This document shows, in pieces, positions 11,201 through 46,840 of a stretch of DNA of 64,000 bases. The DNA is from Siphonodentalium dalli (Eukaryota; Mollusca; Scaphopoda; Gadilida; Siphonodentaliidae), in contig CP136063.1 of NCBI GenBank assembly GCA_032622095.1, forward strand, positions 69,789,980 to 69,853,979, in the 5' to 3' direction. The number at the start of each line of letters is the position of its first letter. Position 1 is the stretch's first letter. The position numbers and the translations under genes were made by a program. The notes below the pieces were generated by a model. The model was not told the origin of the DNA, did no database searches, and saw nothing but the letters and a program-made list of their open reading frames with translations.

Positions 11201-11880
11201 TGCGTACAGTAGTAAATAACTTGCAATTTACGGCTGCAACGGCATCATTCACGTATAATAAAAACAGAAGAGGTCCCAATATTTACCCTTGAGGGACACC
11301 ACACGTGATATTCATAGCATGTGAGTGTGTTCCACTTATGTCAGTAATTTGTGTCCTGTCTGTCAGATATGATGAGAACCATGTTAAGGTGTTATTATCG
11401 CTGACTAGAGCACTTAATTTATCCAAAAGGATAGTATGATTCACAGTGTCAAATGCTTTCTGGAGGTCAATAAAGACCATTCCAGTAAGCGATCCTTTAT
11501 CCATGTTCCTTCTAATAGAGTCGATGAGAGAGATAAGGGTAGATTCGGTTGAGAAGCCAGCTCTAAACCCCGATTGGTGCTCATATAATAAATTATTCTG
11601 TGTTAGGTATTCTTCCATTTGTTTATAAACAATTTTCTCCAGGATTTTAGAAGCCATATTTAGGATGGAAACCGGTCTATAATTACCGGGTGAAGTTTTC
11701 ATTTTTCTTATAAATGGGAACCACTCTTGCAACTTTCAAATCGCTTGGAATGATCCCGTAGTGTATTGTCAGATTTATAATGTGTGTCAAGGGGGAAGAA
11801 ATCACTGAAGCGCCATCTCGAAGAAACCTTGCTGGTATCAGATCCAACCCTGTAGCCTTGGGTTTTACATATTTAGCAGA
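11197..11880 (-). pseudogene. LINE reverse transcriptase, catalytic half
   Basis: Minus-strand pieces contain KATGLDLIPARFLRDGA and VARVVPIYKKN (about 11730-11870), then NYRPVSILNMASKILE, HQSGFRAGFSTEST, VFIDLQKAFDTVNH (first catalytic Asp block) and GVPQG. A TAA stop replaces the expected serine after GVPQG (near 11286), followed by ILGPLLFLLYVNDA. There is a frameshift near 11715, between the KKN block and NYRP, and another near 11205, just before YADD. The order and spacing fit CR1/L2/Jockey RTs. The enzyme is clearly dead. Confidence 0.85.
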
Positions 11881-23199: not shown

Positions 23200-23674
23200 T
23201 ATGTTGTCTGCTTATTTTTCACCAGATGAATAACAGACCATTGTAATGTATACTGTTATAAATGAGTGGGAGATTCCATTTAGCATAGAATGGGTTAATA
23301 TATAATTTATACATGTACTTCTGATTTTGATACTAAAATGAAATGTTTTGAGCCGAGAAGTGCCACCAACAAAACAAACAGGAATTATTCCACCAACGAG
23401 TGTCACCAATGTAACTAATAGAAAATAAATGTAAATATCTGCATTTAGAAAATTTAATCGCCATGCTGGTTTGAACACCCCAACAGTGTTTCATTTCATA
23501 TTTAATGTTGGATGCGGTTTCTGACAAGGTTTTATACAGAACAAAGCAAATAGGATTTAACAATAAAATAACAAAAAAAATAACATTGTTGTTGGGACTG
23601 GAAACCTGAATACATCTATAATTGACCTACTTTGTCCGATACCTAGTTCTCTATTTGCATCACCATCTAGCCTT

Positions 23675-23905
23675 GAAATAGTGGGTGTGATATTTTCAGA
23701 ATGAGGTCCCCAGAGGGTGAATTTAGTGATTCTACCCCACACAGTGGGCTAGCATCACCAAATTCACGCTCTGGGGGACCTCATTCTGCTTAGTCAGTTG
23801 AGGTCCCCAGAGGGTGAATTTAGTTATGCTAACCCAGTGTGGGATAGCATAACTAAATTCACCCTCTGGGACCTCATTCTGCAAATATCAGACACACAAT
23901 TTCAA
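23675..23905. mobile_element. CAAGCC hAT MITE, two hairpins
   Basis: Two adjacent palindromes of the AATGAGGTCCCCAGAGGGTG type with a CTTAGTCAGTTGAGG joint. Flanked by CCTTGAAATAGTGGGTGTGA and GACACACAATTTCAAGGCTTG. Complete or nearly so. Confidence 0.75.
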
Positions 23906-23934
23906 GGCTTGGTCACCATCAGGAATAATAATAT

Positions 23935-25248: not shown

Positions 25249-25399
25249 CAAGCCTTGAAATAGGGTGTCTGTCATTTGCAGAATGAGGTCCCCAGAGGGT
25301 GAATTTGGTGATGCTAGCCTGCTATGCTGGGTAGCATCACTAAATTCACCCTCTGGGGACCTCATTCTGCAAATGACAGACACCCTATTTCAAGGCTTG
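25249..25399. mobile_element. Short CAAGCC hAT MITE with exact TSD
   Basis: A 151-bp almost perfect palindrome with ends CAAGCCTTGAAATAGGGTGT and complement. TAGAGCAT is repeated directly outside both ends (25241-25248 and 25400-25407). An 8-bp duplication and CA-starting TIRs point to the hAT superfamily. Confidence 0.9.
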
Positions 25400-27669: not shown

Positions 27670-28030
27670 TTAACCCTTTACCCAACAAAACGGCCAAAAA
27701 CGGCCAAAAACGCCCAAATAAAGCTTCAACAGCCTAAAATATCTTTGGTCTGTCTCAATAACACCATACAAATATGGATATCATTGGAACCGGTTCATTG
27801 ACCACATTGTGATGGTTACAGTTATGCCCTGTGCCAATGCATTCTCTTATATATGCGAGTCGACCATAGGTCGCCTCGCATATACAAGAGAATGCATTGG
27901 CCTAAATTTTATCGTTTTTAATATGTGTTAAGCCAATGCATTCTCTTATATATGCGAGGCGACCTATGGTCGACTCGCATATATAAGAGAATGCATTGGC
28001 ACAGGGCCGTTCTGTTGGGTAAAGGGTTAA
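27670..28030. mobile_element. TTAA MITE family 1, copy 4
   Basis: TTAA at 27670-27673 and 28027-28030. The left end has a CGGCCAAAAA duplication, and the spacer between hairpins is shortened. Both hairpins present. Confidence 0.85.
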
Positions 28031-30660: not shown

Positions 30661-32286
30661 CAAGCCTTGAAATAGTGTGTCTGTCATTTGCAGAATGAGG
30701 TCCCCAGAGGGTGAATTTAATGATGCTATCATCATGCATGATGGGCTAGCATCACCAAATTCACCCTCTGGGAACCTCATTCTGTTTAGGCCTCAACTGC
30801 TATGGGAGACCTAGGATCAGATTGAAGTTCCCCAGTTGAAGTTGGTGATGTTCACCCATCAGTCACTTCGATTATGCATTTTATCTTCTGCAAATTAGGG
30901 GATATATAAACTGAATAGGAGGGAAAAAGAAACTAAAAACAATGTTAAATTGAGACTATAAATACTTCCCAGAGATGGGGCATAAGCAGAATGAGGTCCC
31001 AGAGGGTGAATTTTATGATGCTATCATCATGCATGGTGGGCTAGCATCACCAAATTCACCCTCTGGGAACCTCATTCTGTTTAGGCCTCAACTGCTATGG
31101 GAGACCTAGGATCAGATTGAAGTTCCCCAGTTGAAGTTGGTGATGTTCACCCATCAGTCACTTCGATTATGCATTTTATCTTCTGCAAATTAGGGGATAT
31201 ATAAACTGAATAGGAGGGAAAAAGAAACTAAAAACAATGTTAAATTGAGACTATAAATAATTCCCAGAGATGAGGCATAAGCAGAATGAGGTCCCAGAGG
31301 GTGAATTTAATGATGCTATCATCATGCATGGTGGGCTAGCATCACAAAATTCACCCTCTGGGAACCTCATTCTGTTTAGGCCTCAACTGCTATGGGAGAC
31401 CTAGGATCAGATTGAAGTTCCCCAGTTGAAGTTGGTGATGTTCACCCATCAGTCACTTCGATTATGCATTTTATCTTCTGCAAATCAGGGGATATATAAA
31501 CTGAATAGGAGGGAAAAAGAAACTAAAAACAATGTTAAATTGAGACTATAAATACTTCCCAGAGATGAGGCATAAGCAGAATGAGGTCCCAGAGGGTGAA
31601 TTTAATGATGCTATCATCATGCATGGTGGGCTAGCATCACCAAATTCACCCTCTGGGAACCTCATTCTGTTTAGGCCTCAACTGCTATGGGAGACCTAGG
31701 ATCAGATTGAAGTTCCCCAGTTGAAGTTGGTGATGTTCACCCATCAGTCACTTCGATTATGCATTTTATCTTCTGCAAATTAGGGGATATATAAACTGAA
31801 TAGGAGGGAAAAAGAAACTAAAAACAATGTTAAATTGTGACTATAAATACTTCCCAGAGATGAGGCATAAGCAGAATGAGGTCCCAGAGGGTGAATTTAA
31901 TGATGCTATCATCATGCATGGTGGGCTAGCATCACCAAATTCACCCTCTGGGAACCTCATTCTGTTTAGGCCTCAACTGCTATGGGAGACCTAGGATCAG
32001 ATTGAAGTTCCCCAGTTGAAGTTGGTGATGTTCACCCATCAGTCACTTCGATTATGCATTTTATCTTCTGCAAATCAGGGGATATATAAACTGAATAGGA
32101 GGGAAAAAGAAACTAAAAACAATGTTAAATTGAGACTATAAATACTTCCCAGAGATGAGGCATAAGCAGAATGAGGTCCCAGAGGGTGAATTTAGCGATG
32201 CTAGCCCACTGTGTGGGGTAGCGTCACTAAATTCACCTTCCGGGGACTTCATTCTGCAAACAACAAACACACTATTTAAAGGCTTG
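30661..32286. mobile_element. hAT MITE containing a 295-bp satellite
   Basis: The outer ends are CAAGCCTTGAAATAGTGTGT and its decayed complement. CATATAAA is repeated exactly outside both (30653-30660, 32287-32294). Inside, the block running from GCAGAATGAGGTCCC through one palindrome and the internal CTATGGGAGACCTAGGATCA ... AGAGATGAGGCATAA sequence is repeated. Block starts are 30690, 30986, 31281, 31576, 31871 and 32166, giving spacings of 296, 295, 295, 295 and 295. The units differ by only a few bases. Confidence 0.95.
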
Positions 32287-32580
32287 CATATAAACACTCT
32301 ACATTCTACAAGAGGTTGCACCATGGAGGCTTGCAACCCCCCATGGCACCAAATAGAAACATGGGCAATGCATGGTTCTGATAGCTGAGTGGATGGACAG
32401 AAAGCAAAGAAAGGTAATTCTACAATGGAAAATGCACTTTTTAAAGCCCTCCTGATGTTGAAATTTCATTCCGATCTGGTAACCTATAGCTGAGGTGTAT
32501 CCCTGGATGAACAGATGGGTAGACGGACAAAATTAACCCATTTTCTCAAACACTGAGGATGTAACAAAAGGGAAATAATT

Positions 32581-33018
32581 AAGACCGAGTTTAGTGTGTC
32601 TGTCGTTTGTAGAATGAGGTCCCCAGAGGGTGAATTTAGTAGGCTAGCATCTCTAAATTCACCCTCTGGGGACCTAATACTGCTTAGGCCTCATCTTCTC
32701 TGGAAAGTTTCTTTATTATCAAATTTCTATAGAAACTTCTTCATAGATTCTATTACTTTTTTAGTTTAGTTTCTCTATGTCCTCAAATTGGCAGACGACA
32801 CATTGCATAATCGAGGTTCCCAATGGGTTTACATCACAATATTCACAATTTGGGACTTCAATCCGAGTCTATGTGTCCCATAACAGATGAGGCCATGCAG
32901 AATGTGGTCCCAGAGAGTGAGTTTCGTTATGCTAGCCTACTGTGCAGGATAGCATAACTAAATTCACCCTCTGGGGACCTCATTCTGCAAATGACAGGCA
33001 CACTGAACTCAGACTTGG
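32581..33018. mobile_element. CAAGCC hAT MITE with exact TSD
   Basis: AAATAATT lies directly outside both ends (32573-32580, 33019-33026). The left terminus is mutated (AAGACCGAGTTTAGTG); the right reads CTGAACTCAGACTTGG. Two palindromes flank an internal block with TCTCTATGTCCTCAAATTGG. Confidence 0.85.
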
Positions 33019-33584: not shown

Positions 33585-34133
33585 TTAACCCTTTACCCAA
33601 CAGAAGGGCCCTGTGCCAATGCATTCTCTTATATATGCGAGTCGATCATAGGTCGCCTCGCATATATAAGAGAATGCATTGGCTTAACACATTAAAAATT
33701 ATAAAATTGTTAAAGAATGTAACAAAAAATGGTAAAAAGTGTTAAAAAAAAGATTGTTTTTAGGCCAATGCATTCTCTTATATATGCGAGGCGACCATAG
33801 GTCGCCTCGCATATATAAGAGAATGCATTGGCTTAACACATTAAAAATTATAAAATTGTTAAAGAATGTAACAAAAAATGGTAAAAAGTGTTAAAAAAAG
33901 ATTGTTTTTAGGCCAATGCATTCTCTTATATATGCGAGGCGACCTATGGTCGACTCGCATATATAAGAGAATGCATTGGCACAGGGCATAACTGTAACCA
34001 TCACAATGTGTTCAATGAACCGGTTCCAATGATATCCATATTTGTATGGTTTTATTGAGACAGACCCAAGATATTTTAGGCTGTTGAAGCTTTATTTGGC
34101 CGGTTTTGGCCGGTTTGTTGGGTAAAGGGTTAA
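33585..34133. mobile_element. TTAA MITE family 1, copy 5, three hairpins
   Basis: Reverse orientation, TTAA at 33585-33588 and 34130-34133. A segment of about 149 bp (spacer plus one hairpin) is tandemly duplicated: GGCTTAACACATTAAAAATT occurs at 33681 and 33830. The extra middle hairpin has a perfect centre, GCGAGGCGACC ATA GGTCGCCTCGC, a hybrid of the two normal hairpins. Confidence 0.85.
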
Positions 34134-34219: not shown

Positions 34220-34574
34220 CAAGCCTGCAAATACAGTGTCTGTCATTCTGCTTAAGCCCTCAACTGCTATGGGAGACCTAGGATCAGATTGAAGTTCCCC
34301 AGTTGAAGTTGGTGATGTTCACCCACTGGGCACCTCGATTATGCATTTTGTCTTCTGAAAATGAGGGGATGTAGAAACTTCCCAGAAGGGAAAACGTAAC
34401 TAAAAACAATGTTAATTTGAGAATATAGATACTTCCCAGAAGATGAGGCCTAAGCAGAGAATGAGGTCTCCAGAAGGTGAATTTGGTGATGCTAGCGGGC
34501 GCGGGATAGTATCACTAAATTCACCCTCTGAGGACCTCATTCTGCAAATGACAGACACACCATTTGCAGACTTG
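34220..34574. mobile_element. CAAGCC hAT MITE, left palindrome lost
   Basis: Ends CAAGCCTGCAAATACAGTGT and CATTTGCAGACTTG. Flanking 8-mers TCCACAAA and TCCCCAAA differ by one base. The left end passes straight from GTCATTCTGC to the internal block, so its palindrome is deleted. Confidence 0.8.
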
Positions 34575-34826
34575 TCCCCAAAGGCTTTCTTTTGTGTCAA
34601 GTACTATAGACTCATTTCACCATTTCATCTAAAATTGAGTCGATTATTTAGGGCATTACTGTATATATATATAATTACATTCAATTTAAAAACAGAATGT
34701 TTGTCTTCCTACCTGATTTTTTTATAAAATGAGAAAAATAAAAATTCAAAACATATTGTCAGGGTATTATATTGTCAGAGTATTATATTGTCAGAGTATT
34801 ATATCGTTAGATTTGTGATCTCTTAC

Positions 34827-34979
34827 CTTTGATGGGCTGGAATTCTTGTTCACCAGTTGGGCTTCTGTCGATGAGGAATCAAACAGTGTGTCGGGAATGC
34901 TGTTTCCAAAGTATATTTTGGTGTTTGTGGAGAGGTATTGGTACTTCATTAGCTCCAAGTACTCTTTAGTCAAATGTAA
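34827..34979 (-). CDS. ERLIN: erlin exon: [12 protein letters not shown] to SSPSK
   Basis: 153 nt, 51 codons, phase 0. Encodes [18 protein letters not shown] then [18 protein letters not shown], the conserved C-terminal oligomerisation region. The donor AAAG|GTAAGA is strong, so a short last exon probably follows at lower coordinates. If unspliced, the frame stops after 11 further codons at 34791-34793. The acceptor TTTTTAG lies in MITE-derived sequence. Confidence 0.9.
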
Positions 34980-37900
34980 CTAAAAACAAAGTTAATTTGA
35001 TACTATAGATACTTCCTAGAAGATGAGGCCTAAGCAGAATGAGGTCTCCATAGGGTGAATTTGGTGATGCTAGCCCACTGTGCGTGGATAGCATTACTAA
35101 ATTCACCTTCTGGGGACCTCATTCTGCAAATTACAGACATGCTATTTGCAGGCTTGTTCACAGTCTGCTTTAAAATTCATTTGAAATCTTTTATCAAGTT
35201 GAGTTGACCCTTTCCTTACTAAATACTCATTGATGAGTATTTATCCCTTAGTAAATGTTCAGATAATAAGTTCAACAAACGACCATCGATTGTTGAACTT
35301 ATTATCTGAAAATATCTCTCAATTAAATAGGAATCCTTCTGAACTTTTATGATCTGTTGTCTGCTTATTTTCCTGAACACACCTCCAGATGAATAATAGA
35401 CTATTCCAATGTATACTTTTAAAACTGGGTAGGAAAATCTATTTAGTAAAGAAAGGGTTAACTCTGTTTAGATACTATGAGCAGGACACAGCAGAGAAAC
35501 ACTGAGATTTCTTTTGTAGGGATAACCAGCTAATACCCAGGTCTGGCAATTCCCAAATATAGCTACAATAGCCATATTTAGCTTACAATAGCCATATTTA
35601 GCTACAATAGCAATATTTAGCTACAATAGCCACATTTAGCTACAATAGCCATATGTAGCTATTGTAGCTAAATATGGCTATTGATGATGGATGAAGCTGG
35701 TTGAAGCCAACAAACACATATTTGAATATACAAGAACATGGTTTGATTATACTCTTAGTAAATTACTATTGTTTGCCATTTTCATGTATAATTAACAAAA
35801 TATTCCAATATTGTTACTCTTTCCTGACAACTGTACCTAAATAGAAGAAGAATAGATCATATATGGATGGATCTGAGTCCCATATCACATAGCATAACCA
35901 ATATCTAAACAGATGCATGTGCTTAGCTATGCTTCTCTGATATTCCGCAAGCCGGTGCAACTGAAATGTCATCGGTAGTGGTTTCATAAGTTGAAACAAC
36001 ATAATACCCCTCACCCTTAGTTGCAACAGCTTGTGGTAATGCTTGCATGTAATGCAAATTGGTGAAATATTGCTATTTTAGCTATAATTGGGAATTGCCA
36101 GACCTGATAACATTGTACACAATCAAGCCTTGAAAAAGTGTGTCTGTCATTTGCAGAATGAGGTCCCCAGAGGGTGAATTTAGTGATGCTACCCCACATC
36201 GTGGGCTAGCATCACCAAATTCACCCTCTGTGGACCTCATTCTGCTTACAGCTGAGCAGAATGAGGTTCCCAGCTCAGCTGTAAGCAGAATGAGGTCCCC
36301 AGAGGGTGAATTTGGTGATGCTAGCCCGCTATGTGGGGTAGCATAACTAAATTCACCCTCTGGGGACCTCATTCTGCAAATGACAGACACACTATTTCAA
36401 GGCTTGTACACAATCACATGACTAGGTGTAACAGTAATTTTTTCGAAAGCATACAGTAATATTTAGTCGGAAATATGGCTTGTTGCAATTCATCGGAAAG
36501 CTCTCACTGAGAGCTTTCCGATGAATGGCAACAAGCCATATTTCCGACTAAATCCTGAGTCGATTATTTAGGGCATTACTGTATTTGTCTATTTTTTTCT
36601 GCTCCAACTATATCTGCCATACTGAATATGTGCACTTCATAGCTACAAAAAACACGAAAAGCGATTCACATTTGGAGAAAAATGACATGAATAATCAGTT
36701 CGATCATTATTGCATATTTTTCATAACAAATCAGATCATGCAATGGTAGCAGTTGGAAAAATAAAACATTCATGCATCCATTGGTGTATCAATTGTATAA
36801 ATCGGACAAAAATGACAAAAACATGCAACATTTTTTAAAGACATTCACCTGCTAAATGGAGGATAAAGCTGATGAATTACTGTCTAATACAGGATTGTGA
36901 TGTGACGACAGGGGGTTTGGGGGTAAAACATTTAGATAATCATAGCTCACACAAAATCAGTTGGAAATTCAGACCAAAAATAGGTTTAAATTGTTCTCAT
37001 AGTGTGATTTAAAAAATATTTCCAACCATAGAAGGTGTCAGGCCTTGGAAATTTTCAACAGTTATCAGTTAGAAAATTCTGAGCTGATGGATGGGAGTGA
37101 AATTTCATAGACTTGGGATATTGGGTGTGATGTGAACATCCCTCCCTGCTCGCTCAGAGACAACACCCGGACTCAGTATAAAGAAAGAAAGAATATAACT
37201 TACTGTCATACTATTTACGTGACCAAAACAAATCACTTCCAGTATATAAAATACAAACGTACTGTACCAATTATTAATATACCAACATTTTAGTGTTTTA
37301 ATAAGACTGAGACAAAATATACATTTCGTTTAAAACACCATCCTTCATGCTCTGGACAAAGGGAGGATAATTACCACATAGTTTAGTGGGTAGGTATCTT
37401 ATATGGGAATGCACATTATCCTGTAACAAGAGCATCGCTATGGCATGGCAAAATACGCCCTTTAGCCATTTCGAATTGTACTACCGCAAAATAAAATAAT
37501 ACTTTGAGCTTACATTTGAAGAAAATCTGATATACCCCTAATTTCAATGCCAAAATGCGGTCAAATTCTAAGTCGAAAAATGGCCGTAACTCATGTATAA
37601 ATAATTCGACAGAACCTATATTCGAACTTGGCCTGTAGTTTTAGCTTGGAAATACACATACCAGCTTTGGTTCAGATCAAACAAGAGCTACGCTGGGCGT
37701 GCAATATACGCCCTCTCTTGGGTCGGCGGAAACTGGTAAAAAAGGGGTATAACTCTGGTAAAAATTGGCGGACGGAACTCAAATTTGAACTTGACCTGTG
37801 TTTTGGTGGGAGAAAGTAATATACCAAATTATCATTGAATCCGATAAGCTCTAGTAAAGTTATCATCCGGACAACAAATTTCAGGGATTTTCTAAGTCAA

Positions 37901-40900
37901 ATAAGGGGCATAACTCCGGTGAAAATTGGCGGACGGAACCCAAATTCGAACTTGAGCTGTCTTTTCTCCTAATAAACCCACATACCAAATTTGATTGAAA
38001 TCGGTTCACTCTAACTAAAGTTATCATCCGGACAACAAATTTCAGGGATTTTCTAAGTCAAATTACGTAAAAAAAGGGGCCATAACTCTCGCAAAAATTA
38101 TCGGATTAATCTGACTTGAGCTGTATTTTGATATATGTAATCCACAAAAAAACGGGTTTTGCGTATAAACATTCCAAAATCGAGTTATCATCCGGAAACC
38201 AAAAAACATAAGAAAAACTGAATTTTCTGAGTCGAAAAAGGGGCATAACTCTGCCAAAAATGGTCGGACAGAACCCAAGTTCGAACTTGACCTGTGTTTT
38301 GGTGGGAGAAAGTAATATACCAAATTTGGATTCATTCCGATAAACTATACTAAAGTTATCATCCGGACAACAAATTTCAAGGATTTTCTAAGTCAAAAAA
38401 CGTTAAATAAGGGGCATAACTCCGGTGAAAATTGGCGGGCGGAACCCAAATTCGAACTTGAACTTACTTTTCGGCTAATAAACCCACATACCAAATTTTA
38501 CTAATTTTGGTTCACTCCAACTAAAGTTATCATCCTGACAACAGGTTAACGGACGGACGGACGCCCGGACGACAGACCAATACTATAATACGGCCTTTTT
38601 TTCAAAAGGGCGTATAATAATCAAAACTGGAGTTATCGGTCGGAAACAAAAATGTTATGAAATTGGTCAAATTCTAAGTCGAAAAAAGGTCGGTAGACCT
38701 CAAGTCCGCCTCTAAGTGTCGGCTTGATACGACCGTTGTTTGCGCATAAAAACCTGTCTTTAGTGCTAGTAAACCTACATACCAAATTTAATTTCATTCA
38801 GTACACATTTACTAAAGTTATCATCCGGAAACCTCAAATTGGCAAAAATTCTAAGTAAAAAAGGGACATAACTCTGGTGAAAATTGGCGGGCGGAACCCG
38901 AATTCGAACTTGACCTGTGTTTTGCTGGGAGAAAGACACATACCAAATTTGGTTAAAATCTGATTAACTCTACTAAAGTTATCATCCGGACACCAACTTT
39001 TGGGGTTTTATATGTCGGGTCGGCGGACAAAAAAAGGCCATAACTCTCGCAAAAATTATCGGATTAAACCGAAATAGAGCTGTATTTTGATATAAGTAAT
39101 CCACAAAAAAACGGGTTTTGCATATAAACAATCCAAAATCAAGTTATCATCCGGAAACCAAAAAACAGAAGAAAAACTTAATTTTCTATGTCGAAAAAGG
39201 GGCATAACTCTGCCAAAAATGGTCGCGCAGAACCCAACTTGACCTGTGTTTTGCTGGGAGAAAGTAATATACCAAATTTGGTTTGAATCTGAATTAACTC
39301 TATTAAAGTTATCATCCGGAAACCAACTTTCAGGGGTTTTCTAAGTCAAAAAAGGGGCATAACTCTGGTGAAAATTGGTGGACGGAACCAGAATTCGAAC
39401 TTGAACTGTCTTTTCTGCTAGTAAACCCACATACCAAATTTAATTTAATTTGGTTCACTCTAACTAAAGTTATCATCCGGAAACCTCGGACGGACGCGCT
39501 GATTATAATAGTCCTCCGAACCTGTTGGGTTGGCGGACAAAAAGGGCCGTAACTCATGTAAAAATAATTGGACGGAACCCATATTCGAACTTGGCCTGTA
39601 TCTTTAGCTGGGAAATACACATACCAACTTTGGTTCAGATAAAATAATCCAAACTGGAGTTATCGATCGGAAACCAAAAAATGTTAACGGACGGACAGAC
39701 GGACGGATGGACTGATAACATAATACGACCTTTTTTCAAAAAGGGCGTATAAAAATTTGGTACGCACTTGCTTGTTCTGATAGTAAGGCGGGATGCAATT
39801 TACAGAGTCACTGGTGCCCCCTGGGAAACCCAAATCTAAATATAAATTGGGAATCTATTATCACTGTAACAAACCTTATTGGAATCTGATTCTTTTTGCA
39901 CTCTATAAAAGTCAGCATCTGCTTTAGATTCCATTGTAGCTTTATAAGTTAAATCTGTGAAAAGAACAAAATATATATACCCTGTGTTGAGCTGAAAAAT
40001 CTTCAGCAAGCCTGAGTTTAGTGTGTCTGTCATTTGCTGAATGAGGTCCCCAGAGGGTGAATTTAGTGACGCTATACTGCATATTGGGCTAGCATCACTA
40101 AATTCACCCTCTGGTGACCTCATTCGGCTTAGGACTGATTTTCTGGGAAGTATCTCAAATAAACATTGTTTTTAGTTACTTTTTCCCTTCTCTTCAGTTT
40201 CAATATCCCTAATTTGCAAAAGATAAAATGCATAATCGAGGTGAATTGGGTGAACATCACCAACTTCAACTGGGGAACTTCAATCTGATCCGAGATCTCC
40301 CATAACTAAGGGCTAAGCAGAATGAGGTTCCCAGAGGGTGAATTTAGTGATGCTAGTCTGCTGTGTGGGATAGCGTCACTAAATTCACCCTCGGGGGACC
40401 TCATTCTGCAAATGACGGAAACACTAAACCCAGGCTTGGTTTGTTGAACTTATTACCTGAACATTTCCCACCAACAAGCCTTGAAATAGGGTGTCTGTCA
40501 TTTGTGAGGTCCCCAGAGGGTGAATTTAGTGAAGCTACCCCGCATAGCGGGTTAGCATCACCAAATTCACCCTCTGGGAACCTCATTCTGCTGAGGTGTA
40601 AGCAGAATGAGGTCCCCAGGGGGTGAATTTGGTGATGCTAGCCCGCTATGCGGAGTAGCATAACTAAATTCACCCTCTGGGGACCTCATTCTGCAAATGA
40701 CAGACACCCTATTTCAAGGCTTGCCCACCAATGAATATGAATTCTTCAACACTTGTATAATCTTCTCGTCTGGTTGATGTTTGCTAATATATCTTTAATA
40801 TCCATCCAAATTAATAATAGAACATTCCAGTGAATACTTTTACCACTAAATGGGAGAATCCATTTAGTAGAGAAATGGTTAATATTGTGAAAACGAACCA

Positions 40901-43900: not shown

Positions 43901-46840
43901 GTAGACACACTATCTGCAGGCTAGTTAATCATACATACATAAGTTCGTAATTTTTCCTGATTTGCTCAGGTATCTTCGGCTTTGTAACTCGAACAGCTTG
44001 TACGTGTAATCCTGGAGAATACATGTTCAAATCTAACTGCAGTGAGTTCTTCAGATTTTCATCTATCTGGTCTGAAAAGTATATGGAATGGAGATATTAA
44101 ATGATGAGTCGTAATCTACCATGCAAGAAATATGGTACAAACATAAACACAAATGTAAATACAGTCGAAATGACAAGATAAAGTGATTTTCCAAACTATC
44201 ATAGAAAGTCTTGATTCATTTATTCCACTGACTAATTAGAGACTGTATATGTACTGCAGTGGATGATAGACAATAACACTTCAAATAACCATCATAAGCA
44301 TGGTCAATATTCACTGCTTGTCAAATTGTATTGTGCTCCGGTTTGCGCACCTTCAATCGTAATAGCGTAGCAAGGGGGAAGCTCTATCTTGCAGGGTTAC
44401 TTACTTACTGTGCAAAGGTTGCAAAGGTCAGGTTGGTGGACGACTCATTCAATATCCAACTTCCTGCTGATCGCAGATCGAAATATTTCAACACATTTGA
44501 CTAATAAACTTGGGGGTTTTGATAGCCTGTGGTGACAATATACCCGATACTTGTCTTTTGTTGAATACCCACACATACACTGATGCATTTAGCTCCTATT
44601 CGATATTTGAAATATAACTAATTTCTGTGTGACAGTTTCCTATTTTCATGTTTACAGCTACGGTGAAATCCAAAATAAAAATAAAATGGTTTAACAAGAG
44701 CCATTTTTTTTGCTGAAATTTTGCGAAAATCCTGTGCTAATACATTCTCTTATAAATGCAAGTCTCCCATAGGGAGCTTCGCATATATAAAAGAATAAAT
44801 TGCTCTAACAATATTTACCTTGATCTTGTAAGCCAGTGCATTCTCTTATATATGTGAGGCTCCCTATGGGAGACTCACATATATAAGAGAATGCACTGGA
44901 ACATGACCATTAATGCTGCATCAGCACAGATCCAGTCATGAAATGGTTATAAATAATTATCAAATATATGGACTTAAATGCGGCTACTTCAATGAAGATT
45001 AGTCTACGATAGACTTTCTTGATAAAAACCTGTATTTTGACAAAAACCTTAATTTGTATTCACAGATCTACTGTCTAATATCTTAGTAATGATCCCCTTT
45101 ATTCTCCGGATCATGTTAGTAATACTTACCAAACAGATCAATATAAACTTCATGTAAGTTATGAATGCTGCAGAACTGATTGAGTTCATGATGAATTTTG
45201 TTGTATATAAGCGTCTTGTCATAGTCAGCTGTGTAATTCTTTGCTATATCATACACTGAAATCAAAGAGGTAATATGAATCTGAAATACAGTAATGCTCT
45301 AAGTAATCGACTTCTAAACCACAGCAGAATTATGGTAACTTTTCATGATTTAGTCGGAAATATGGCTTGTTGCCATTCATCGGAGAGCTCTCGGGGAGAG
45401 CTTTCCGATGAATGGCAACAAGCCATATTTCCGACTAAATCATGAAAAGTTACCCATAATTCTGCTGTGGTTAAGAAGTCGATTACTTAGAGCATTACTG
45501 TACAATACAGAGGAGAGATGAAAGAGAGGAAAATAAAATTTAGTAGTTGAAAAACAAATTTCCATTTCATACTGGCTACCATGTACAAACACACACAAAC
45601 CCATAATTTTGGCGAAACAAATTATAATTCTTTGTTACACTTCTCCCTATTCAACAAATCACATTGTCGCCCGCTAGCCGGGGTAATATTGTTTTTGTCG
45701 CCCGCTTGATGTTACACTGCTAGAATGTATCCATCTCCAAGCACACACAGAGCAGTTACCCAGTGACTTCAATTCACAAATATATACTGGAAGCAAAAAT
45801 CTTATATTCCCCCCCATTCTGCAAAAAACACAAGTTGTGGTGTTGGCTAATTTGCATATATTTATATAACGCTAATATTTGAACTTTTAACTTGATACTA
45901 TTATCTGAATGGTGTCTAACATTTTATGTCAAAGGAACTCATTCATTCAATATTTTCATGTCAAAATTAATATGCGAGATTGAATGAGTTGATGGGCATA
46001 GGCTTTGTGTCGGCTGATTATAAATTTGTGTTGGACTACGCATGCTTATCTCTAGAAATAGACTTCTTCAGTATATGTGCATTACTATTATTTTAACATA
46101 TGTGGGTTTTGTATGCTGATGTCCTTGGTAGTATTGGCACACATGAATATTCATTTATGAAATTGACAACTTCTATCGAGCTTTCGGGAAAGATTGTACT
46201 GTAATTAACATTGCATGTAAATTTTGCACACAAGATGATATGCTGACCATGAATATGTCAAATTGCACATCAGATTAATCTCCTATGGGAGACTCGCATA
46301 TATAAGAGAATGATCTGGCACAGGATCTTCAATGCTGCACCAGTATATCTCCAGTCATGAAAGAGTTAAGAATAACAGACCTTTCCAATGTATACATTTA
46401 AAACTGAGAGAGAAATCCCATTCAGTATAGAAAGGGTTGACCGAGACTGTATAATAACATGTTCAGGCTACAATTTCTATTTATGGGGAATATGTTAATG
46501 AAAATATAATAAATAGTAGTATATGAACAAAAAATCTAATATTTTACCTGCATCAACATTTAATTTGTTCACAACCTCTATTCTGTCAAAGTATATCATA
46601 ACACCACCACTGAAAAATGAAGAGATCAGAGCATATAATAATGCAGTTTATTTAAAATAAGACTATATATATGCTTTATTCTCTGATCCAATGTAACATG
46701 AGAAAACGAAAATTATATACAAAATATGAATAGAACGAAGAAATTTTGAATGTACAAAATATACAAGGACCTCTCGGGTGTCATAATCAGCATTATCAAC
46801 ATCGCTTTCATCATCACCAGTTTCTTCCTCAAAATAATAG

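What the first reader, a model, noticed from the sequence alone, without database searches (positions are those of the whole stretch)
34970..35151. Erlin exon acceptor lies inside a MITE
The acceptor TTTTTAG and its pyrimidine tract at 34980-34995 (minus strand) fall in sequence that matches, nearly base for base, the internal part of the hAT MITE also seen at 34385-34440. The MITE match starts at the exon border. So either a MITE insertion replaced the original 3' splice site of an essential conserved exon, or the truncation point happens to coincide with it. MITE capture of a constitutive splice site in an otherwise conserved gene is uncommon.
Basis: partly seen in the sequence, partly recalled or inferred. 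Interest (0 to 1): 0.7.

Follow-up and report, generated by a model that had tools for sequence, protein, structure and literature searches.

The report
Transposon-derived splice acceptor in erlin
The signal that starts the last recognised coding exon of the conserved gene erlin lies, by sequence, inside a truncated short DNA transposon; transposons are known to supply splice sites, so this is a neat new example rather than a new kind of thing.

Summary
A 185-bp piece (34972-35156) of a 355-bp MITE runs into the 5' end of erlin exon E9 (34979-34827, minus strand). It keeps one terminal repeat and the hairpin, lacks the other 172 bp, and matches the full copy at 34220-34574 at 86.7% (E=2e-59). 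Homology ends 8 bases inside the exon, not at its border. The family is real: 7 of 11 nearest end pairs have 8-bp target duplications at 7/8 or 8/8.

All 14 AGs upstream of the border within the MITE piece give early stops; only the border AG gives full-length erlin. It is the weakest of nine erlin acceptors, the only TAG, and the only one with stronger AGs just upstream.

Most likely a MITE entered an existing intron and a later deletion, perhaps guided by the shared AGTTAC.TTT, joined its interior to the exon start. Splice sites from transposons are known. No orthologue or RNA was available, so use, timing and mechanism are inferred. An element end within 8 bp of some junction is not rare here (3550 of 20000 shifts).

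The parts
34972..35156 (-). Truncated MITE copy: one terminal repeat (at 35156), hairpin and internal part kept; 172 bp of the 355-bp element missing on the exon side
   Evidence: BLAST E=2e-59, alignment, terminal repeat
34980..34993 (-). Acceptor AACTTTGTTTTTAG of erlin intron 8, within the MITE
34972..34979 (-). First 8 bases of exon E9 (TTACATTT), still alike to the MITE (7/8, 7/8, 6/8): microhomology or MITE-donated coding bases
34827..34979 (-). Erlin exon E9, 153 bp, phase 0 at both ends
39875..39954 (-). Erlin exon E8
34980..39874 (-). Erlin intron 8 (between E8 and E9), full of repeats; its donor lies outside the MITE family blocks
34990..34990 (-). T at -11, A in 9 of 9 relatives that have a base there; raises the recalled-matrix score from 2.33 to 5.03
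35016..35017 (-). Decoy AG at -36, higher score (8.22) than the border site; use would give an early stop; AG also present in 1 of 11 aligned relatives (27309 copy)
35030..35031 (-). Decoy AG at -50, score 5.92; use would give an early stop
35034..35127 (.). MITE hairpin arms upstream of the acceptor
   Evidence: inverted repeat I16, fold
34220..34574 (+). Fullest copy of the same MITE with 7/8 target duplication, just past E9 in the gene's direction

Best explanation
A MITE of an 8-bp-duplicating, hAT-like family inserted in the intron upstream of erlin exon E9. A later deletion or rearrangement removed the exon-proximal 172 bp of the element together with the original intron end and joined the element's interior to the first bases of the exon. 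The family carries a latent TTAAC...TTGTTTTTAG in this orientation, so splicing now uses the MITE's AG, with exon length and frame intact. The join may have been guided by AGTTAC.TTT, shared by element and exon start, which would explain why the breakpoint lies on the junction. A later A-to-T change at -11 may have strengthened the site. Shown: homology, truncation, reading frame, no other AG in the piece that gives erlin. Inferred: use in RNA, insertion then deletion, microhomology, selection on -11. My odds for the parts: acceptor in use is MITE-derived, about 0.9; insertion followed by deletion, about 0.75; microhomology at the join, about 0.5.
For: Homology of 34972-35156 to family copies, E down to about 2e-59. 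One terminal repeat kept; no duplication on the exon side (1/8). All 177 nt upstream of E9 are MITE (34980-35156). Joining E8 to the border AG gives [15 protein letters not shown], gapless against solved erlin-2 (NKLKLTPEYLQLMKY) and erlin-1 (NKHKLTPEYLELKKY). Of 19 AGs from -177 to +60, all 14 upstream of the border give early stops, +16 too, and +18, +27 and +36 stay open but lose 6, 9 and 12 residues; only the border AG keeps all. The joined 288-residue frame of nine exons has no stop and matches Pfam Band_7 at E=1.2e-24. The first exon residue L is shared with erlin-2, which favours an ancestral exon start over eight MITE-donated bases. E9 is the weakest of nine acceptors (5.03 against 6.93-11.52) and the only TAG, as a replacement might be.
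Against: No RNA and no orthologue: neither use nor an older acceptor is shown. The site is poor: AGs at -36 and -50 score higher, and 9.5% of 1049 AGs in the gene span score as high or higher. The matrix is recalled, approximate and human, not fitted to this organism. An element end within 8 bp of some junction arises in 3550 of 20000 shifts. The eight alike bases could instead be MITE-derived coding sequence.
Confidence: 0.72

Rival explanations
1. The MITE also donated the first eight coding bases: the deletion ran into the exon, and the first codons were replaced by MITE sequence that happened to code acceptable residues (TTA CGT TTG or similar, later TTA CAT TTG).
For: 7/8 identity to two elements runs to 34972 and stops there; CGT to CAT is a CpG-type change from the 34392 copy; residues here vary between erlin-1 (HKL) and erlin-2 (LKL).
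Against: L at the first position and L at the third agree with erlin-2, which random replacement would seldom give; exon length is exactly kept.
Confidence: 0.25
2. Leaky or poison acceptor: the stronger AG at -36 is used much of the time, giving a truncated reading frame, so that the MITE lowers or tunes erlin output.
For: E9 is the only one of nine acceptors with an upstream AG in 120 nt that scores higher (8.22 at -36, 5.92 at -50); product stops after 7 residues.
Against: Scores rest on a recalled matrix; no RNA; E9 is conserved in sequence with erlin, so the correct form must be made; it is not known whether E9 is the last exon, so decay of the stop-bearing RNA is uncertain.
Confidence: 0.2
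3. The likeness runs the other way: the MITE family captured the end of an erlin intron.
For: The internal segment with TTTTTAG is present in a few copies only (three elements besides this one).
Against: The piece carries the family's terminal repeat and hairpin, which are shared with about 20 blocks; in the other elements the internal sequence continues past the border with TCCCTTC or TCCCTCC, not with exon sequence.
Confidence: 0.03
4. Introner: the element created the whole intron.
For: MITE supplies the 3' splice site, as some Introners do (PMC9860276, section 4 part 1 seen).
Against: The donor at 39874 lies outside all 20 merged family blocks, and the intron is 4895 bp of mixed repeats.
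Confidence: 0.03

Closest known systems
Splice sites supplied by maize Ds1 (PMC5432752, abstract and passages seen; that Ac/Ds is hAT is recalled)
   Same: A non-autonomous element that makes 8-bp duplications carries acceptor sites usable by the host
   Different: Ds1 sites lie within 35 bp of its ends and the paper mostly simulates extra transcript forms; here the site is internal to a truncated copy and serves a conserved exon
MITE-associated alternative splicing in mulberry (PMC6593561, passages seen)
   Same: MITE sequence at 5' or 3' splice sites
   Different: Alternative splicing events, seen in transcriptome data; here a probable main acceptor without RNA
Transposon-derived splice sites in human genes (PMC3538075, passages seen; that study itself left repeat-derived sites out of its set)
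   Same: Its background says that Alu-derived sites are common and generally weak
   Different: Those often add or alter exons; here the exon is old and its length unchanged
Introners (PMC9860276, outline, section 4 part 1 and passages seen)
   Same: DNA-transposon-like elements that can carry the 3' splice site
   Different: Introners create whole introns; this is one end of a long intron

Membership tests
hAT-like MITE | 8-bp target site duplication | tested here: met
   Of 11 nearest end pairs 5 show 8/8, 2 show 7/8, 4 show 1-3 of 8. Met by the family, not by the erlin copy itself, whose other end is lost (1/8)
hAT-like MITE | Terminal inverted repeats in a short element | tested here: met
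   CAAGCCT/CAAGTCT-type ends, fullest copy 355 bp
hAT-like MITE | Mobilised by a hAT transposase acting on the same ends | not testable with these tools
   No whole genome held; five window ORFs scanned beside erlin gave one RVT_1 and no transposase
Transposon-derived splice acceptor | AG and pyrimidine tract within transposon-homologous sequence | tested here: met
Transposon-derived splice acceptor | Used in mature RNA | not testable with these tools
   Inferred from frame and homology only
Transposon-derived splice acceptor | Absent in relatives that lack the insertion | not testable with these tools
   No animal genome collection; a 26-base MITE pattern has 0 matches in viral and in prokaryote genome contigs
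Introner | Element similarity reaches near both splice borders | tested here: not met
   Donor at 39874 is outside all 20 merged family blocks
Erlin (SPFH / Band 7) | SPFH domain and erlin C-terminal region | tested here: met
   Band_7 E=1.2e-24; Erlin-2 and Erlin-1 chains are the top PDB matches of E8-E9, E=3.3e-11 and 4.4e-11

The most novel reading that the evidence does not exclude
A MITE family carries a latent 3' splice site, and chance likeness between that site and an exon start (AGTTAC.TTT) lets a microhomology deletion swap the native acceptor for the transposon's without changing the protein, leaving a stronger poison acceptor at -36 that now tunes the gene. If repeated across the genome, this would be a protein-silent route by which DNA transposons overwrite splice sites of old introns.
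Probability: 0.2. Interest if true: 0.55.

Novelty: new member of a known kind. Interest (0 to 1): 0.38.

Why it matters
It is a clear sequence-level case in which the acceptor of a conserved exon, not of a new exon, is transposon sequence while the protein keeps its length. Such swaps leave no mark in protein annotation, so their frequency is easily missed. With related genomes and RNA this case would show whether microhomology can steer a deletion to a splice junction, and whether decoy acceptors inherited from the element cost the host.

Tried and rejected
Simple insertion: the duplicated 8-bp flank was sought on the exon side; 1/8 adjacent, nothing above 6/8 (three places) in 290 positions. 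Other acceptors: all AGs from -177 to +60 were joined to E8 (19; eight sites first). Acceptor scores: nine sites and their upstream AGs. Against calling E9 odd in every respect: its spacing to the nearest upstream AG (23) equals that of E7 (23) and is near E4 (25), and E4 has more AGs in the last 60 nt (5 against 4). I first took the AG at -36 as unique to this copy; the check shows it in 1 of 11 aligned relatives (27309 copy, differing neighbours) and absent in 10. Transduplication and Introner origin: see rivals. RNA fold of the piece: -79.4 kcal/mol, z -7.6; this mainly shows the MITE hairpin and says little on splicing. Relatives: a 26-base exact MITE pattern gave 0 matches in viral contigs and 0 in genome contigs; these hold viruses and prokaryotes, so this says little. 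Human exon borders of ERLIN1/2, to date the intron, were sought in papers (listings, passages of PMC7039913) without a usable answer. Paper searches on transposon splice sites (12-20 titles seen in each) listed no case that I recognised as an acceptor swap in a conserved exon; most papers in these lists were not opened, so this is no proof of absence. PMC4732748 (clam haemoglobin genes, passages) reports MITE-like repeats in promoters and introns; the passages seen put no splice site in them. The organism was not identified by any search.

Full report
What was checked. The finding says that the acceptor of an erlin exon lies inside a MITE. The sequence was read and compared with itself by repeat search and BLAST. 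The stretch 34972-35157 matches 34392-34575 at 86.7% over 188 columns (E=2e-59), and matches further copies across the window. In gene orientation the copy reads from its terminal repeat at 35156 through a hairpin (35034-35127) into the internal part and ends ...CAAATTAACTTTGTTTTTAG|TTACATTT, where | is the exon border. Seven other sequences that carry this internal part have TTACGTTT, TTACTTTT or TTTCTTTT there and go on with TCCCTTC or TCCCTCC, unlike the exon; five of the seven are units of one tandem array, so they stand for three elements. Homology thus ends 8 bases inside the exon, not at its border.

The family. A scan with a 41-base terminal motif found 27 ends. Of 11 nearest end pairs, 5 have identical 8-bp flanks (25249-25399, 30661-32286, 32580-33017, 36124-36406, 40475-40723), 2 have 7/8 (23667-23911, 34220-34574) and 4 have 1-3 of 8. 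This is a real cut-and-paste family. Eight-base duplications and CAAG...CTTG ends suit a hAT-like element (recalled), but no transposase was seen, so the superfamily is a likely label only. The family covers about 6574 of 64000 bases in 20 merged blocks, some with a few bases of flank. The erlin copy lacks 172 of the 355 bp of the copy at 34220-34574. The 8 bases next to its truncated end match the flank of its intact end at 1/8.

The gene. tblastn with human ERLIN1 (recalled sequence) found nine colinear exons on the minus strand. Fitted to GT-AG borders they run from 53836 to 34827; the joined frame of 288 residues has no stop and matches Band_7 (E=1.2e-24). The N-terminal exon or exons, and any exon beyond 34827, were not found. 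E9 ends in a donor-like AAG|gtaaga; if that is not spliced, the frame stops 11 residues later. The joined E8-E9 peptide matches Erlin-2 and Erlin-1 chains of the PDB (E=3.3e-11 and 4.4e-11) without gap across the junction: [15 protein letters not shown] against NKLKLTPEYLQLMKY and NKHKLTPEYLELKKY.

Which acceptor. All 19 AGs from -177 to +60 were joined to E8. The 14 upstream of the border, all within the MITE piece, give early stops; +16 does too; +18, +27 and +36 stay open but lose 6, 9 and 12 residues; only the border AG keeps the whole. A TAG stands in frame directly before the exon. With a recalled human-like matrix the border site scores 5.03, lowest of nine (others 6.93-11.52), and it alone ends in TAG; 9.5% of 1049 AGs in the gene span score as high or higher. 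It is also the only one of the nine with a higher-scoring AG in the 120 nt upstream: 8.22 at -36 and 5.92 at -50. T at -11 differs from the A of 9 of 9 aligned relatives that have a base there and lifts the latent family site from 2.33 to 5.03. The AG at -36 is absent from 10 of 11 aligned relatives and present in one. The first change could be an adaptation and the second a burden; with one sequence neither is proven. The alignment used 12 sequences chosen for holding the internal part or its neighbourhood, not every copy.

How it arose. Insertion alone does not make a one-ended element. Insertion in an existing intron followed by a deletion or an interrupted repair is the simplest path. The first eight exon bases match the MITE continuation at 7/8, 6/8 and 7/8 for three relatives, while the other eight erlin exons match at most 4/8, and only 7 (TTACGTTT) or 16 (TTACTTTT) of 6493 AGs in the window are followed by a 7/8 match, the MITE copies included. 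Together with the AG this gives AGTTAC.TTT on both sides, as a microhomology join at the junction would, in which case the exon start is ancestral; the first residue L, shared with erlin-2, agrees. The rival is that these bases came from the MITE. Only an orthologue decides. That some element end lies within 8 bp of some junction is not rare (3550 of 20000 circular shifts), so position alone carries little weight; the weight lies in homology and frame.

Compared with what is known. Splice sites from transposons are known from Ds1 (PMC5432752, passages), mulberry MITEs (PMC6593561, passages) and human repeats (PMC3538075, passages); Introners carry splice sites but make whole introns (PMC9860276, outline, section 4 part 1 and passages). 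This case differs in serving a conserved exon with no change in length. It is a new member of a known kind; interest is moderate because the strong reading needs RNA or relatives that were not on hand.

Noticed in passing
30661-32286: A MITE of the same family holds 5.3 tandem copies of a 295-bp unit (97% matches, 30690-32256) between ends with an identical 8-bp duplication CATATAAA: a satellite-like array inside a mobile element. [quoted passage not shown] sequences not compared.
   Followed up: partly
43924-43939: Another family copy ends 14 nt past the erlin E5 donor (exon end 43939, gtatgt); the donor itself lies outside the element.
   Followed up: partly
34458-34545 and 35034-35125: Exon E9 lies between two MITE hairpins with mutually complementary arms (37 nt at 92%, 43 nt at 86%), an arrangement that could favour exon skipping or circular RNA (inference).
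   Followed up: no
33615-33980: A 149-bp unit in 2.5 tandem copies that starts GCCAATGCATTCTCTTATATATGCGAGGCGACC; a related 99-bp array stands at 27833-28030.
   Followed up: no
11283-11735: Reverse transcriptase fragment on the minus strand, Pfam RVT_1 E=1.2e-20.
   Followed up: no
37738-38543: Imperfect tandem repeats of 161 and 171 bp (ggggcataactc... units) in erlin intron 8; similar sequence goes on to about 39750.
   Followed up: no
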